Positions 9,021 to 19,419 of a stretch of DNA of 64,000 bases are shown in pieces (positions within the stretch are counted from its first letter, which is position 1; each line of letters opens with the position of its first letter). The notes below the pieces were generated by a model, which was not told the DNA's origin, ran no database searches, and was given only the letters and a program-made list of their open reading frames with translations. Both the position numbers and the translations under genes were made by a program. The stretch comes from Heligmosomoides polygyrus polygyrus (taxonomy: Eukaryota > Nematoda > Chromadorea > Rhabditida > Heligmosomidae), in the NCBI GenBank assembly GCA_947396885.1, contig OX377205.1:75674969-75738968 (forward strand), read 5' to 3'.

Positions 9021-10302
9021 TTAGGTTGTAACGAAATAAATGGCATTGAACCACTGTAAATTTAAACAGTTAATATCTCGGCTTTTAGGCAAGTTTATTA
9101 ATCGAAATAAAAACCTTCTGATTCTACACATCTTTGCCAACGTGACACAATCTTTTTTATCCCAGTAGCATAAAAATAGAAGTTCTGGAATTGACGAAAT
9201 CTTCGAAGGCACTTTCGGCATCCTGTTGGCATTTGGATATTTCCCCTACCAAGAAGTCGCCAAGATGCTTGAAGAAATGGTAGTCTGTTGGGGAGAGGTC
9301 GGGAGAAAACGGAGGATGTGGTAGAGTTTCAATGCTCAGCTCATTCAATTTCTGCAACGTCATTCGTGCTACATGGGGGCGAGCATTGTCGTGCAGAAGG
9401 AGAACTCGCCTTCGGTTTACCGAGGCCGGCCGGATATCCTTCAACTTTTTCATCATTTCTTCAATTTCAGTGCAGCAGTTCTCTGCCGTGATGGATTCAC
9501 CGGGAGGGAGGAAGCTGTGGTGAATAATTCCCAGCGAACACCACCATACTGTCACCATTACTTTCTTTTGGTGCAATTCCGGCTTCGCAAAAACCTTGGG
9601 GCTCTCATCGCTGTCCACCCACTGTGCCGATCGTCGCCTGTTGTCGTACATTATCCATTTCTCGTCACAGGCTACGATGCGATCAAGGAATGGGTCCGTT
9701 TCGTTCCGTAGAAGCAGTGCGGACGAGATCTCATATCGTCGGTTTCTTTGCTCCTCAGACAGCTCGTGAGGCACCCATCTTTCCAGCTTTTTGGTCTTTC
9801 CAATTTCCTTCAGATGCCGGGCAGCTGTGTTGTGACTGACGCCAAGAACCTTCGCTATCTCCCTGGTACCTTTGTGTGGATCCTCCTCTACCACATCTCT
9901 CAGCTTGTCCTCATCAACATCACTATGCCTCCCACGACCTTCATGTTCTTCCAAGATCTCATCTCCATTCCGGAACTTCTGATACCAACGATACGCCGTC
10001 CGAATTGTGGAACATCCTTGACCGAATGCGGCGTTGATCTTCTCGTCCGCCTCCTTAACTGTGGTGCCCAGCTTGAATTCATACAAGTAAATGCCTCGGA
10101 TTACCCTTTTGTCCATCTGCAGAAAAGTCAATAAAACTCTAAAGTTTTCCCACTTTTACATAGAAAATTTGGTACTTTCCGGTAGAGCAAAGTTTGCGCT
10201 TCTAAATGATATGCCACATGTTACGGTTTGTTCTTGATCAAACGCGTAAAGACGCGCCTAAAAATGGCGCGAGCCAGTGCCATTTAATTCGTTACAACCT
10301 AA
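9021..10302 (-). mobile_element. Full-length cecropia-type mariner transposon
   Basis: The 28-bp terminal inverted repeats start TTAGGTTGTAACGAA and differ at two positions between ends. Both ends are flanked by the TA target dinucleotide (9019-9020 and 10303-10304). The 1282-bp length and single antisense transposase ORF are typical of mariner. The transposase resembles the cecropia subfamily to which human Hsmar1 belongs. Confidence 0.95.
9157..10131 (-). CDS. Mariner transposase, frameshifted near the C-terminus
   Basis: The enzyme binds the terminal repeats and cuts and pastes the element at TA. The ORF has 324 codons; the native start is probably the second Met (MDKRVIRGIY). The N-terminal part contains two helix-turn-helix regions (AYRWYQKF; GVSHNTAARHLKEIGK). 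WVPHEL marks the linker. The catalytic triad is D156 (ACDEKW), D248 (LHDNARPH) and D283 (SPTDYHFF), with exactly 34 residues between the last two: the D,D34D signature. The frame breaks in a T-run near 9172-9178, and the family's C-terminal residues continue in the next frame to about 9107. The damage looks like one missing base; otherwise no stop is present, so the copy is young. Confidence 0.93.
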   Translation of the reverse strand: MTFLQMDKRVIRGIYLYEFKLGTTVKEADEKINAAFGQGCSTIRTAYRWYQKFRNGDEILEEHEGRGRHSDVDEDKLRDVVEEDPHKGTREIAKVLGVSHNTAARHLKEIGKTKKLERWVPHELSEEQRNRRYEISSALLLRNETDPFLDRIVACDEKWIMYDNRRRSAQWVDSDESPKVFAKPELHQKKVMVTVWWCSLGIIHHSFLPPGESITAENCCTEIEEMMKKLKDIRPASVNRRRVLLLHDNARPHVARMTLQKLNELSIETLPHPPFSPDLSPTDYHFFKHLGDFLVGEISKCQQDAESAFEDFVNSRTSIFMLLG

Positions 10303-14071: not shown

Positions 14072-14715
14072 ACCATTTTCACGTCGAATTGGACACTTTT
14101 CAAATCAAATTAGATACAATCCGAACTCTTCCAAATCGAAATTGCCTTCAGGCACGTTAAACTACAGACTTAATACGATGGTAAGAACAATTTTTTGTTT
14201 AGGGAAAATCTGGAATTACTTCCACAACAACAACTGTAATAATTCTATAAAAGTTTTATTTCTAAAAAAATAATAAATTAAAATTTATCTTCAAGCACAA
14301 CGAAGAAGTAAGCATAGAGCGCATTAAAAGATCAGATCGCACGATGCGCTCGAAAAGCTCGTCGCAATTTTTATTTGATCGACAGTGTAAATGCCAACTA
14401 CATGAACCATCAAAGTGAGGATATACATATGCGCTATTTACAGTTGCTTTTGTTGCATCGCTAACAGGTGTCAAACTCCATGCAAACACAAATTCTGCTA
14501 TCAGTCGAATAAAAATCGCGACGTCTTGAAAGAGATGTATTTATTTATTCGCAACATAATTGTGCGCAACGACAACTGTAAGGACACGGTATACTTAGTG
14601 AAACAAATGAGAGCAAAATGAAAACCTCAACATATCAAAACTTTAAGCTCAGCACGGTATTGAAGAGTGAGGACATCTGCAGAAGAAATAGTCAATTATG
14701 ATATAACAATGATAT

Positions 14716-15458
14716 GGTTTAATTACCCAAGTTTGAGACGAGCGGTGTCGAACCTGAAAGCACAGCAAAATGGACTTCGCCGCTGCTTTCGAAATGACGG
14801 CGCTTGACTGGATTCTTCTTGCATTACTGGTGGTATTATTCTGGAGATGGTTGAAGAGACGTGAAGAACCAGAAGTCACTCCGCCGAAGCCTCGTACGAT
14901 TCCTCCTCTGCCCAATCAAGACATGACACTGGAAGAGCTTCGAAAGTACGATGGCGTTCAAGACGAGCATATACTCTTCGCGCTGAATGGAACTATATAT
15001 GACGTCTCACGTGGACGCAATTTTTATGGTCCAGGTGGTCCATATGGTGCACTGGCGGGAAGAGATGCCACAAGGGCACTGTCCACTATGGATGTAAAGG
15101 ACGTGAGGGATGAATGGGACGATCATGAGGGTCTAACCGAAGACGAGAAGGACACCGCAAAAGAATGGGAGACATCGTTCAAGTACAAGTATCCTGCTGT
15201 TGATAAGCTCATTAAGGACGGCGAGGCACACACTGATTACGGTGGTGTAATATCCAGTACGCTGGGCTAAACAACTTGAGCTTACTTGTACGGTTAATGA
15301 GCCGTAGTTGTCCACCTAAATGGTCGGGCCTCAACTCATGCACTTTTCAGATGTTTTTCAGACAATTTTCCGGTTGTAAATCATTATTGCCCAGATTGTA
15401 ACAGGTATTCACTAATTTGTGTTGTCTTTGTTCATAAAGAGTCTGTATTAAAAAAAAA
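14716..15458 (+). CDS. vem-1: SL1-tagged retrocopy of a PGRMC/VEM-1 gene, intact ORF (14770-15270)
   Basis: The 166-codon ORF is a membrane-associated progesterone receptor component, a haem-binding cytochrome b5-like protein of the ER and endomembranes. It has an N-terminal membrane segment (about residues 10-26), a Pro-rich linker and the core fold from about residue 50. NFYGPGGPYGALAGRD contains the expected haem tyrosines (Y86, Y92), and K140/Y141 match the downstream pair of human PGRMC1. There are no introns. Bases 14716-14737 are identical over 22 nt to the SL1 leader (GGTTTAATTACCC then AAGTTTGAG). They are not followed by GT, so this is not an SL RNA gene. A 32-nt 5' UTR follows, then the ORF, a 179-nt 3' UTR with CATAAA at 15433, and nine A's at 15450-15458. 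I infer a reverse-transcribed mature mRNA. Whether it is expressed is unknown; the open frame suggests youth or selection. Confidence 0.88.
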
Positions 15459-16365
15459 TAAGACAGTAATGAACTGGCCGGAACAATGGGAAACTGTGGG
15501 CAACTGACGAAGAGGAGCAGTTTCCCGCCAAACACTGCAAGTCGTTCGAGAGTAACGGCTACGGATACCTACTTAGTAGGTCCGTCGACTTCATCAGTAC
15601 CCACATAACAGCTGCTTGGGAAAACGTGGGAAAAAAGGGTGAGGAAATTTTGGGGAGGCATTAGTAGAGAGAAGCAAACAACAAACACAAAACAAAGAAA
15701 AAACATAGGAAACATTATTAAAACTAAGTGCTAAGAATAAGGAAATCATCAAGGTGACAAATTAGAAAAGAAAATATAACACTGAAACAATAGAAGGGGT
15801 TGATGAAGGGATATCCAGTAAGACAAAAACAACAGAAAGTGAGAAATTTAGGAAAAATAAAAAGAAAAATAAAATAAGAAATCGAACACTACTTCTAGAT
15901 AATGTCAACAATGTGCAATGTTGCAAGCAAATTTATTTTCTTCAACCTCATTTTAAAAACACCCACATTTGGAGCTTCTAAGAGGCTAGCAGGCAACATC
16001 TGTAACAAACGAGCACCACGGAAGAAAAGGGAGTTAAAGACTTTTTCACGATTCTTTCTCTTTATTTTGGGACAATGGAATCTATAGATATTTCGATGAT
16101 CCATCGTTGGGAGGAATGTCCAATACTTGCTAGCTCTAAGCCGAGATTCCCCTTTCAGAACTTTAAAGCAAAAAACTAAGTCATTGAAAATGCGTCTGTA
16201 AAGGAGGCTCTTAAGGTTAAAAAGCCTGAGCCTCTCTTGTTAATTTGGCAGCTCTCTAAAATCCCTCGTGTAGGATACACAGCTATAAAACAAAATTTTT
16301 GTGAAGGTCTTCTGAACGCTCTCAATTTTGGCTTGAAACTTCTTTGTGAAAGGACTCCAAACCTG

Positions 16366-16896
16366 TCAACAATACTCAACTATTGGAATAACATAAGACT
16401 TATATAAACTAATCAATATGGCTCTGTCACTAGATTTAATGTTTCTATAAACTAGAAAAAGAATGGAAAACGCTTTCCGTACAATAGCATCAATATGGTT
16501 TGCAAATTTAAGCTTATGATCAATAAAAATTCCAAGGTCACGAACCTCATATACAGATTGGAGTTCATAGTTGCTGACTTTGTAACTCATATTAGGCTGA
16601 TTTCCAAGGTGGAGAGTGTAACTTTTGGATAGATTCACAGGTATCTTCCAAGTGCTAGCCCAGTCTACCATAGAATTGATAGACTGGGATAAGTCCTGGT
16701 GGACATGAGTCATATTGTCATTGTTATAAGCCCCATAAATCTTTATATCATCGACATACATCTGTACCCTCACAACAGCATCAGTGGTTAAGCTCGCAGG
16801 GAGATCGCTTGTGTACCCTAGAAACAGAATTAGAGAGTACACCCCCTTGGAAAACTCCACTGCTGCAAGCATAACTTCTCGAGAAAGAGTTACCAA
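16366..16896 (-). pseudogene. LINE reverse transcriptase fragment
   Basis: A 176-codon open stretch. It carries the YVDD catalytic box (QMYVDDIKIYG), the thumb motif WASTWKIPVNLSKSY and DLGIFIDHKLKFANHI, a typical order for CR1/jockey reverse transcriptases. The neighbouring palm motif FDLSKAF is in another frame, so the copy cannot make an active enzyme. Confidence 0.75.
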
Positions 16897-17518
16897 CCTT
16901 AAGCCTTCCAGATAAATAAGACCGTATCCATTCCGAACTGGTATAGCTTATTAATAAGTTTTTCGTGGTCTACTCAAAAGCTTTTGATAAATCGAAATAA
17001 ATGACATCAACTGAATCCCCACTGTTAAGTGCAAGGTTCCAATCAAAAAGACAGTCTGAAAGTTGAGTGGCAGTGGAAGCACCTGACATGAAACCATGCT
17101 TCTGGAACGGAATCGCTAGTTTCTAAATAGAATATGTAGTATTTCTAATGTCTAAATAGAATATGTAGTATTTTGTCTCGAATAATGCTTTCCAACACTT
17201 TTATCGGAGTCGGAGTTATGCTTATGGGGCGATAGGAAGAAACTAACTCTGAATTGGCATTTTTTAGAATAGCAGTGATAATAGATTGTTTCCAGATTTC
17301 GGGTACTTCACTGTAAAATAAAGAGATGTTAAAAATTATGGATAAACGTTTAGAAAGAGAAGGTGCACATTTTTTGTAAACTATTTGTGGAATTCCGTCA
17401 AACGTTGCGTTTAAGTCTCTTCATTATATTTAGAACTTCCCTTGCCTGCACAAGAAATTCAAATCCGCCCTGACTTTTCGGCTCAGCTGTATTCGCATTT
17501 GTGTCAACATTGCTTGGT

Positions 17519-17911
17519 TCAAATGAAGCATTTTCTTGTCTTGAAGTGAGCACGGAGGCAAAAAACCTTGCAGTGCTTCAGCTTTTGGAACTCGTCCTTG
17601 TAGGGAATACCATCGTCATCCTTCAAAGTAGGAAGCGCAGACTGTGATTTTAGTTTAGAGCGCATTAACGAAAATAGGGCCTTTTTGTTCCGACTTCTCG
17701 ACGCAAGCTTTTCTTTGTAAGCTAAAAACCTTCTTAAATGGTGATCCAACTCATCACATATTTTCTTGTACTGCGGGTGGAAGAGTAGGTCAGGCAACAA
17801 CTTATAAAGCCGTTCTTTTTGTGCTATAAGATTTAAGATGTGTTTGGGGAACCTCTGAACAGGAGCTTTTAACGAATCAAACAGTACACGAGTGGATAAA
17901 CCATAGACCAC
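17519..17911 (-). pseudogene. LINE endonuclease-RT linker fragment
   Basis: A 130-codon open stretch rich in Lys, Arg and Leu (HHLRRFLAYKEKLASRSRNK). It lies between the endonuclease end and the RT palm of the same minus-strand LINE. No independent function is implied. Confidence 0.6.
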
Positions 17912-18420
17912 GCGACAAAACCGCTAATACAGGTCATCAATGTTTTGATATCCCTCAAAAACTGCCCACCAATCTATGCTCATAAAATAATTGTCCAAAC
18001 TAGAGTAATCTGCTCTGCTAAAATTTGGGAGGGGTAATGCACGATGGTCAACTGATGGAAGTGGGGCCTCGAACGCTACAATGTTGTGATCAGAGGAAGC
18101 AAAAGGGGGAAGAGTTTATATTATACTGTAGTCTCTTTCTTGCCTTCCTGCTCTTTAAAACAGACTTTAGCCATTTTTCCTAATTTTTTTATAAAATTTC
18201 AAACGATGTGTTCTCTTATAGGCTAGATAAACTTCAAAGAAAGTCATGTTAAAATTTTTCTTGCACAAAAATTTTTCTAACTCTTTGGTAGAGTCTCTAG
18301 TTTAATGTAGAGGAAGCTTATTTTGAATTGGAAGAATTCGCTTTGTGTTTCAAAAGTCTTAAGCCAGCTTAAAAGAGTGGACAATTCAATTTGAAAAGTG
18401 TCCAATTCGGGGTGAAGACT

Positions 18421-19419
18421 ATATAAATTACCAGCCGTCGGTACGGCCGAGAGGCTTCTTGACCGCTTCGCCGTGGTAATAACTTCTCATCATCAATCCA
18501 CCTATGCCACGGTTTTGTCAGGAAGAACATCTTAACTACGTCGAAAAAAGAAATGGACGACACACACAAAAAAACGGTTATTTGACCAATATCGATTGAT
18601 GGTGATCGATTGTTCAAAAACGAACTCCAGATTCGTGTTCAGCGACCTTGATTACCCCTAGGACTGAACTATCGTGCCGCTTGAACGACATCCTCAAAAA
18701 AAAATCGATAATATTGATCGACATCGATTGCCTCCCCTGCTGTGAACGCTTCCCGTCGATGATCATCTAAATCCCCAGGCACGGTCGCCGACGTGTTCGG
18801 CACGTCTACGGCTCGCCAAGCACGGTCGCCGACGTGTTCGCCACGTCTCCGGCTCGCCAGGCACGGTCGCCGACGTGTTCGGCACGTCTACGGCTCGCCA
18901 GGCACGATGTCGATGTTCACAATCGTTTCCAATACGCAGTGCCCCCACTCCAGTAGTGACGGAAACACGTACACACACACGTTTGCTCCTTTATATATAG
19001 TAGGACAGTCCATAGACCTTATAAAGATGCGACTGGTGGGTGATCTAGCGTAGTGATTTCAAGAACCTACCAATCCATTTCACACCAATTCAAACCAACT
19101 GCGATAAAGATGCTTGGGATATGGCTCTGCACCCCCTATAACGGAGCTCTACGTTCAAGGAGACTCCCGACATAACGCCACCTGGGCTCAATTCCGGTCT
19201 CACAGAACTTGAGTAACCAGTCAGGCCTAATCTTCTATGGCTCCGCCACCTCGAAGGGACGCAACGCAATGAATCGGAAGTCGGAAAGTTCTTGATTTTT
19301 TTCGGGTGATCGAGTAAGTCTACCTCCGTTGTTCGTTGTATATCACACATTTTTATTCGTCCGTAGTCTAGAAGTTGCTCACCCGTGCCGCACTGAACAG
19401 GGTTGGCTAAATGCTAGAC
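18421..19419. other. Intergenic
   Basis: Holds the 41-bp tandem repeat at 18776 and otherwise nothing I recognise. Confidence 0.4.
18776..18907. repeat. 41-bp GC-rich tandem repeat, three units
   Basis: Units contain GGCACGGTCGCCGACGTGTT and CACGTCTACGGCTCGCC. The third unit runs into unrelated sequence. Confidence 0.9.

What the first reader, a model, noticed from the sequence alone, without database searches (positions are those of the whole stretch)
14716..15458. A trans-spliced mRNA written back into the genome: SL1-tagged, intact vem-1/PGRMC retrogene
All 22 bases of SL1 stand directly before a short 5' UTR, an intronless complete PGRMC-family ORF, a 3' UTR and an A-run. No GT follows the leader, which excludes an SL RNA gene. 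The only simple explanation is reverse transcription of a mature SL1-spliced, polyadenylated mRNA. The frame is fully open and the haem-binding residues are kept, so it may be a functional new gene. Upstream regulation must come from the surrounding LINE/DNA element, as the leader leaves no native promoter.
Basis: partly seen in the sequence, partly recalled or inferred. Interest (0 to 1): 0.92.

Follow-up and report, generated by a model that had tools for sequence, protein, structure and literature searches.

The report
SL1-tagged retrocopy of worm vem-1
This worm chromosome carries a DNA copy of one finished messenger RNA of the vem-1/PGRMC gene, with its trans-spliced SL1 leader, joined exons and A-tail, likely written in by a LINE reverse transcriptase; the leader marks such copies plainly, but nothing found here shows that this one works as a gene.

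Summary
Confirmed as a retrocopy; not supported as a functional gene. SL1 is exact at 14716-14737. The parent lies on another chromosome-scale contig (C27:99316046-99321313), with four exons and three GT-AG introns, all precisely absent from the copy. The parent's first exon starts right after an acceptor (tttattgcag), at the base that follows SL1 in the copy. The copy's A9 is not encoded in the parent. The empty site is seen in four other copies of the LINE tail into which it inserted. There is no proper target-site duplication (5 nt at most), and a 6-nt filler precedes SL1. The ORF is open. Outside a divergent 62-nt 5' patch, however, replacements are as frequent as chance allows (4 of 9, expected 6.1, P 0.11), an open frame is expected in about 56% of neutral copies, and G145D hits a glycine kept in 16 of 16 relatives that cover it. 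It is not alone: 8 of 100 sampled exact SL1 places look like copies of recognisable host mRNAs, and others sit in LTR retrotransposons. SL-tagged retrogenes are known in dinoflagellates; my searches listed no nematode report.

The parts
14122..14535 (.). high-copy interspersed repeat upstream of the insertion
   Evidence: 74-82% matches on many contigs; 6558 first-look candidates, 40 scored
14535..14709 (-). left flank: tail region of a LINE copy (target of the insertion)
   Evidence: 95% over 175 nt to C39:22050583-22050757; 93 first-look candidates genome-wide, 40 scored and listed including self
14710..14715 (+). 6-nt filler TGATAT between target and SL1; repeats the target bases TGATAT that start 11 nt upstream of it
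   Evidence: absent from the empty site in four related copies
14716..14737 (+). complete SL1 spliced leader, DNA-encoded
   Evidence: exact 22/22
14738..14769 (+). 5' UTR; starts at the parent's acceptor position
   Evidence: parent exon 1 begins after tttattgcag| at C27:99316046
14770..15270 (+). intronless ORF, 166 aa plus stop, PGRMC/VEM-1 (Cyt-b5 domain). Positions of the lost introns: after 14898, 14994, 15150
   Evidence: translation; Pfam PF00173; exon lengths 161, 96, 156, 299
15271..15449 (+). 3' UTR, 6 differences from the parent in 179 nt
15450..15458 (+). A9, remnant of the poly(A) tail (then TAA before the target resumes at GACAG)
   Evidence: the parent's DNA continues TATT|TGTTCTG instead
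15457..18113 (-). right flank: degenerate LINE copy with reverse-transcriptase remains, antisense to the retrocopy
   Evidence: three pieces at 88-93% to the same C39 stretch that holds the left flank; RVT_1 3.7e-05, below Pfam's cut-off, in 16366-16947

Best explanation
The stretch 14716-15458 is a complete processed copy of a vem-1/PGRMC messenger RNA (SL1 leader, four joined exons, A-tail) whose intron-containing parent stands on another chromosome-scale contig, and it was likely written into an old LINE copy by target-primed reverse transcription. Steps: the parent pre-mRNA is cis-spliced, trans-spliced to SL1 and polyadenylated (inferred from the parent's acceptor and splice sites and the copy's ends). 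A reverse transcriptase, likely of LINE type, copies the mRNA from its A-tail to the very 5' end of SL1 (inferred from the tail and the full-length 5' end). The product joins the tail region of an older LINE copy with at most 5 nt of target duplication and 6 nt of filler (shown by four empty copies). Afterwards the copy most likely drifted: 12 of the 15 differences outside the 5' patch are G or C in the parent and A or T in the copy, and two conserved residues are changed. The open frame is most likely youth, not selection (inferred).
For: Parent with 3 GT-AG introns, all precisely missing; 712 of 712 positions align without an indel, 28 differences. Parent acceptor tttattgcag abuts the first base after SL1. 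A9 not encoded at the parent locus. Empty site, target running straight through ...RCAAGACA..., in C39:22.05 Mb and three further copies. Neutral-drift test: after codon 10, 4 of 9 changes replace an amino acid, 6.1 expected, P 0.11; P(no stop) 0.56. G145 is G in 16 of the 17 other aligned sequences and a gap in the seventeenth, and D only in the copy; at position 49 N occurs only in the copy. 8 of 100 sampled SL1 places look like copies of host mRNAs.
Against: There is no target-site duplication of the usual 7-20 nt (that range is recalled; longest shared word near the ends 7 nt, reached by 17% of shuffles), so LINE target-primed reverse transcription is not proven; end-joining of a cDNA is possible. 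Over the whole ORF replacements are fewer than chance (4 of 14, expected 9.15, P 0.0037), which would fit selection if the 5' patch counted as ordinary change. The 5' patch (13 differences in 62 nt against 15 in 650, Fisher P 6e-8) is not explained: no other source for it appeared in the DNA search of the genome (9 candidates scored) or in the loci then held.
Confidence: 0.9

Rival explanations
1. The copy is a functional retrogene: transcribed from a neighbouring promoter, perhaps re-spliced to SL1 at the AG that ends the DNA-encoded leader, and kept by purifying selection.
For: ORF fully open, no indel in 712 nt; whole-ORF dN/dS 0.11 by NG86, P 0.0037 against neutral placement of all 14 changes; haem-pocket residues kept.
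Against: Five of the ten synonymous changes lie in the first 10 codons, inside the anomalous 5' patch; after codon 10 the data do not differ from neutral (P 0.11) and an open frame is expected in 56%. G145D and K49N at conserved residues. No expression data. Directly tandem SL1 relics, the footprint of re-splicing and re-copying, were not found: 4 places genome-wide by exact pattern, none directly adjacent; two of the four hold two SL1 copies 12-13 nt apart and were not resolved into genes.
Confidence: 0.1
2. An SL RNA gene or an SL1-bearing repeat next to an unrelated intronless gene.
For: SL1 is common here (4594 places) and often lies in repeats: 57 of 100 sampled sites fall in 12 sequence families.
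Against: The base after SL1 matches the parent's first base after its acceptor; no GT donor; both flanks join seamlessly in empty copies, so SL1 came in with the cDNA.
Confidence: 0.01
3. Conventional DNA duplication followed by intron loss, or the C27 gene gained introns.
For: None found.
Against: A DNA duplicate would not carry SL1 or an unencoded A-tail, nor end exactly at the acceptor and the poly(A) site.
Confidence: 0.01
4. The cDNA was made by another reverse transcriptase (LTR or Penelope-like) and captured at a double-strand break rather than by LINE target-primed reverse transcription.
For: No proper target duplication, 6-nt filler that repeats nearby target. Of the 8 other host-mRNA-like copies, 6 have no run of 8 A in the stretch downstream that was read (up to 1.1 kb) and 2 (RACK1, RPL29) have an A8 more than 600 nt downstream. 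RACK1 and RPL29 have an inverted piece of their own sequence upstream of SL1, as in fold-back cDNA. SL1 lies in LTRs.
Against: This copy is full length with an A-tail, and the empty copies show that its left flank is plain target apart from the 6-nt filler, so there is no LTR and no fold-back piece at its 5' end.
Confidence: 0.25

Closest known systems
Dinoflagellate SL-tagged retrogenes (DinoSL relicts; Slamovits and Keeling 2008, as reviewed in PMC6050394, passages read)
   Same: a 22-nt trans-spliced leader is carried into the genome at the 5' end of a retrocopy and serves as a tag
   Different: there about 22-26% of genes or transcripts by the passages read, with multiple relicts in some; here one leader, no directly tandem relics found genome-wide, a different leader and an animal host
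Retrocopies in Caenorhabditis (PMC3532220; start of abstract, passages)
   Same: RNA-based gene copies in nematodes; one passage suggests that trans-spliced transcripts may be copied back
   Different: 9-48 per species in the abstract; the words SL1 and leader do not occur in the main text; its method section was not read
LINE-made processed pseudogenes of mammals (recalled)
   Same: intron loss, A-tail, insertion elsewhere, drift
   Different: no leader tag, usually 7-20 nt target duplications, which are lacking here
Thymidylate synthase retrogene of Trichinella pseudospiralis (PMC4022200, search listing only)
   Same: single nematode retrocopy
   Different: 'spliced leader' counted 0 times in the listing; nothing else of it was read

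Membership tests
processed retrocopy | intron-containing parent elsewhere, introns precisely absent from copy | tested here: met
   3 introns GT-AG at C27:99316046-99321313
processed retrocopy | A-tail not encoded at the parent | tested here: met
   A9 in copy, TATT|TGTTCTG in parent
processed retrocopy | insertion absent from related copies of the target (empty site) | tested here: met
   four of the LINE-tail copies, the four that were read, lack it
processed retrocopy | target-site duplication | tested here: not met
   at most 5 nt with one mismatch (AACAA/AATAA). Read here as a point about mechanism, since the three features above define a retrocopy
SL-tagged retrogene (dinoflagellate kind) | complete leader directly before the spliced mRNA body at the acceptor position | tested here: met
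SL-tagged retrogene (dinoflagellate kind) | tandem leader relics from repeated rounds (in some members) | tested here: not met
   none at this locus; 4 non-adjacent double SL1 places in 656 Mb, exact matches only
LINE target-primed reverse transcription | A-tail at the primed end | tested here: met
   A9 then TAA|GACAG
LINE target-primed reverse transcription | target duplication 7-20 nt (recalled) | tested here: not met
   so it is not filed as a proven LINE product
LINE target-primed reverse transcription | active LINE enzyme able to use poly(A) mRNAs | not tested
   no search for intact LINEs was made
functional retrogene | purifying selection on the copy | tested here: inconclusive
   P 0.0037 whole ORF, P 0.11 without the 5' patch
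functional retrogene | transcription of the copy | not testable with these tools
   no RNA reads held
SL RNA gene | GT donor and SL RNA body after the leader | tested here: not met
   SL1 is followed by ACGAG, the parent's exon 1

The most novel reading that the evidence does not exclude
SL1 is a shared address rather than a passive scar: LTR retrotransposons of this worm carry the exact SL1 in their LTRs (shown), cell mRNAs carry it at their 5' ends, and an element's reverse transcriptase may use that shared end to pick up and finish full-length cellular cDNAs, so that SL1-tipped mRNAs are written into the genome by the hundred, the vem-1 copy among them, some as ready-made new genes.
Probability: 0.07. 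Interest if true: 0.85.

Novelty: new variant of a known kind. Interest (0 to 1): 0.5.

Why it matters
In most animals a retrocopy is recognised mainly by lost introns, so copies of intronless genes and the true 5' ends are missed. Here the leader is a 22-nt stamp that says 'this was an mRNA' and fixes the start of the cDNA to the base. A genome with thousands of SL1 places lets RNA-based gene duplication in a nematode be counted directly, its machinery read from the junctions, and the survival of copies compared. The same count shows a trap: SL1 sequence is abundant in this assembly for several different reasons, so SL1 reads or SL1 primers can hit genomic copies.

Tried and rejected
SL RNA gene: a pattern of SL1 plus GTAAACATTG (SL RNA body recalled from C. 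elegans) gave 4 places, all with one mismatch, so this genome's SL RNA genes were not identified by it. Recycling through SL1: only 4 non-adjacent double places, read; none is a clear re-copied gene, though two hold two SL1 copies 12-13 nt apart. Target duplication: searched with 0, 1 and 2 mismatches, nothing beyond chance. Another source for the divergent 5' patch: none; possible causes are a different parental haplotype (hyper-divergent haplotypes are reported for the sister species H. bakeri in PMC10682056, passages) or conversion of the parent; not tested. Five other PGRMC-like places (C39, C52 twice, C13 twice) are degenerate exon-2- or exon-3-like fragments, not full copies. Of ten frames scanned, three gave no family (the ALKBH6 copy and two gag-like frames from SL1-bearing LTR elements, so 'gag-like' rests on recall), and a fourth (L102) gave only sub-cut-off coiled-coil hits. 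Six further short frames: 0 of 6 reached a curated Pfam cut-off; one of them was then recognised as RPL17/uL22 against solved structures. The CCHC-knuckle copy (L100) is called CNBP-like from recall; solved structures gave only retroviral knuckles and AIR2. Literature: (open-licence PMC only) listed no nematode paper on SL1-tagged retrocopies; listings only, except where passages are cited. C. elegans Cer1 mRNA is SL1-trans-spliced (PMC3315495, passages), which is not the same as SL1 encoded in an LTR.

Parents of the other host-mRNA-like copies were not searched successfully (the NEDD8 request did not complete), so their status as retrocopies rests on SL1 directly before an mRNA-like frame, not on intron comparison. 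The right flank was not searched against the genome on its own.

Full report
WHAT IS THERE. The genome in which the window lies has 656,174,362 bases; its contig C27 is 107,429,949 long and the other large contigs fetched are 100-112 Mb. The published Heligmosomoides polygyrus assembly is given as 656.6 Mb with scaffold N50 107.4 Mb and six chromosomes (PMC10682056, passages), so the species is likely H. polygyrus (inferred; the totals differ slightly). The closest proteins are from Teladorsagia (85%), Nippostrongylus (82%) and Haemonchus placei (79%).

THE PARENT. A DNA search of the whole genome with the copy's body found one place at 91-99% identity, in four pieces, on C27; the remaining matches are 84-89% fragments. 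Read base by base, the exons are C27:99316046-99316206, 99317505-99317600, 99317668-99317823 and 99321015-99321313 (161, 96, 156, 299 nt). Each intron begins GT and ends AG. Exon 1 is preceded by tttattgcag, an acceptor; its first base corresponds to the base directly after SL1 in the copy. At the 3' end the parent continues TATT|TGTTCTG where the copy has TATTAAAAAAAAA. The two are 712 nt each without an indel, with 28 differences: 8 in 32 nt of 5' UTR, 14 in 501 nt of ORF (10 synonymous, 4 replacements: G32E, K49N, G145D, M161I), 6 in 179 nt of 3' UTR; 24 of 28 are transitions.

THE EMPTY SITE. The left flank 14535-14709 and the right flank 15457-18113 both match one continuous stretch of C39 near 22.05 Mb, where they abut. 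A search with the left-flank tail gave 93 first-look candidates, of which 40 places were scored and listed, self included. All four empty copies read ...TATGATAYARCAAGACA.... The filled site reads ...TATGATATAACAA, TGATAT, SL1 ... A9, TAAGACAG.... So the insert brought SL1 with it, there are six extra bases that repeat nearby target sequence, and the target duplication is zero to five bases. The right flank holds remains of a reverse transcriptase on the minus strand (RVT_1 3.7e-05, below Pfam's own cut-off; two neighbouring frames gave no family). The copy therefore lies antisense in the tail of an old LINE copy. Upstream, 14122-14535 is a very common repeat, and a mariner-type transposase frame lies at 9157-10155.

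DOES IT WORK AS A GENE? The 28 differences are not spread evenly: 13 lie in the first 62 nt (Fisher P 6e-8). Neutral placement of the observed changes on the parent ORF gives, for all 14, 9.15 replacements expected against 4 seen (P 0.0037); for the 9 after codon 10, 6.1 expected against 4 (P 0.11). A stop-free frame is expected in 55-56% of such copies. These tests treat every difference as a change of the copy, which they need not be. Of the 15 differences outside the patch, 12 are G or C in the parent and A or T in the copy. In an alignment of 18 proteins, position 145 is glycine in all 16 others that cover it (P0012 has a gap); the copy has D. Position 49 is K in most, R or M in a few, and N only in the copy. 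Positions 32 and 161 vary among relatives. The open frame and kept haem-pocket residues are thus what a young drifting copy would show; selection is not excluded but not shown. The 5' patch remains unexplained.

IS IT ALONE? I fetched the 100 exact SL1 places that one search listed. They are the first in coordinate order, C1:0.5-34.1 Mb, with 81 of them in the first 17 Mb, not a random sample. 57 of 100 fall in 12 sequence families, 43 are single. A rule-based sorting made before RPL17 was recognised gave 28 LTR-type, 22 of a GTAAAC...CTGAACCACC family, 12 of a CTGAAGA...GAAAC family, 7 host mRNAs, 31 other; it is rough, and one LTR-like place (L040) was put in the second class. With RPL17, 8 of 100 look like host mRNAs: NEDD8 (open 76-codon frame), RACK1 (3' part lost), RPL29, RPL38, RPL17, TMA7, ALKBH6 and a CCHC-knuckle protein. 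Pfam supports NEDD8 (ubiquitin family), RACK1 (WD40), L29e, L38e, TMA7 and CCHC; ALKBH6 and RPL17/uL22 are supported by solved structures, not by Pfam; the exact gene names NEDD8, RACK1 and CNBP are recalled. At that density (8 in about 34 Mb) simple scaling gives about 150 in 656 Mb; this is a crude inference. Only NEDD8 of the eight is clearly open over its whole length in what I read; the others show stops, shifts or truncation there.

OTHER SL1 CARRIERS. Of nine pairs compared, four (L093/L094, L117/L118, L096/L097, L113/L114; 7-11 kb apart) share stretches of at least 369-417 nt (some cut by the end of the fetched DNA) at 93-100% identity that contain SL1 82-100 nt before their end, and one member of each pair is followed by TGGTGCATCG or TGGTCCATCG, like a tRNA primer site: SL1 inside LTRs. 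The other five pairs are less clear. Two of the host copies (RACK1, RPL29) have an inverted piece of their own sequence before SL1 (13 and 15 nt), like fold-back cDNA.

MECHANISM AND KIN. An A-tail and a 5'-complete insert in A/T-rich target point to LINE-type copying; the missing target duplication and the filler leave end-joining open. By its defining marks it is a processed retrocopy, and it works like the SL-tagged retrogenes of dinoflagellates (PMC6050394, passages), in a different lineage with a different leader and without tandem relics. A study of Caenorhabditis retrocopies (PMC3532220) suggests copying of trans-spliced transcripts, but the words SL1 and leader do not occur in its main text. 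My seven literature searches on this (open-licence papers only) listed no nematode report of SL1-tagged retrocopies; a report elsewhere cannot be excluded.

VERDICT. A real, cleanly documented SL1-tagged retrocopy; a new variant of a known kind; functional status unproven and more likely none. The wider finding, that SL1 seems to stamp many retrocopies and also sits in LTRs in this genome, is worth more than the single copy.

Noticed in passing
L093/L094, L117/L118, L096/L097, L113/L114 (C1 16.12, 33.27, 16.24, 28.71 Mb): Exact SL1 inside LTRs of LTR retrotransposons, 82-100 nt before the LTR end; a TGGTGCATCG-like primer site follows the LTR. In the LTR-type class, 22 of 28 places have GT after SL1. 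The BEL/Pao survey PMC3118150 holds the words spliced, SL1 and leader 0 times (find).
   Followed up: partly
L045 (C1:3438800-3440600) and 12 other sampled places: A family SL1-GTAAACyGTGTCGAACAACTGGTGTATG..., 18 of 100 sampled places, six of them in a tandem array of about 200-bp period; not placed in any known class.
   Followed up: no
L027, L030, L035, L036, L043, L067 and others (12 of 100 sampled sites): SL1 followed by CTGAAGA...GAAAC, the core motif of a hammerhead ribozyme (recalled), some with head-to-head inverted SL1 copies, as in Penelope-like elements (recalled).
   Followed up: partly
L063 (RACK1 copy), L064 (RPL29 copy): Inverted piece of the copy's own sequence just upstream of SL1 (13 and 15 nt), suggesting fold-back second-strand synthesis.
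   Followed up: partly
window 14738-14799: 13 of the 28 parent-copy differences fall in this 62-nt 5' patch; cause unknown.
   Followed up: partly
L108 (C1:23720400-23721900, minus): SL1 directly before an open 76-codon NEDD8 frame; its parent could not be searched because the request did not complete.
   Followed up: partly
L120 (C52:3047800-3050000): Two complete SL1 copies 13 nt apart, a possible re-spliced and re-copied transcript; no gene recognised after it.
   Followed up: partly
window 9157-10155 minus: Nearly full-length open mariner-type transposase frame, 332 aa.
   Followed up: no
window 18772-18906: Three copies of a 53-nt repeat at 41-nt spacing.
   Followed up: no
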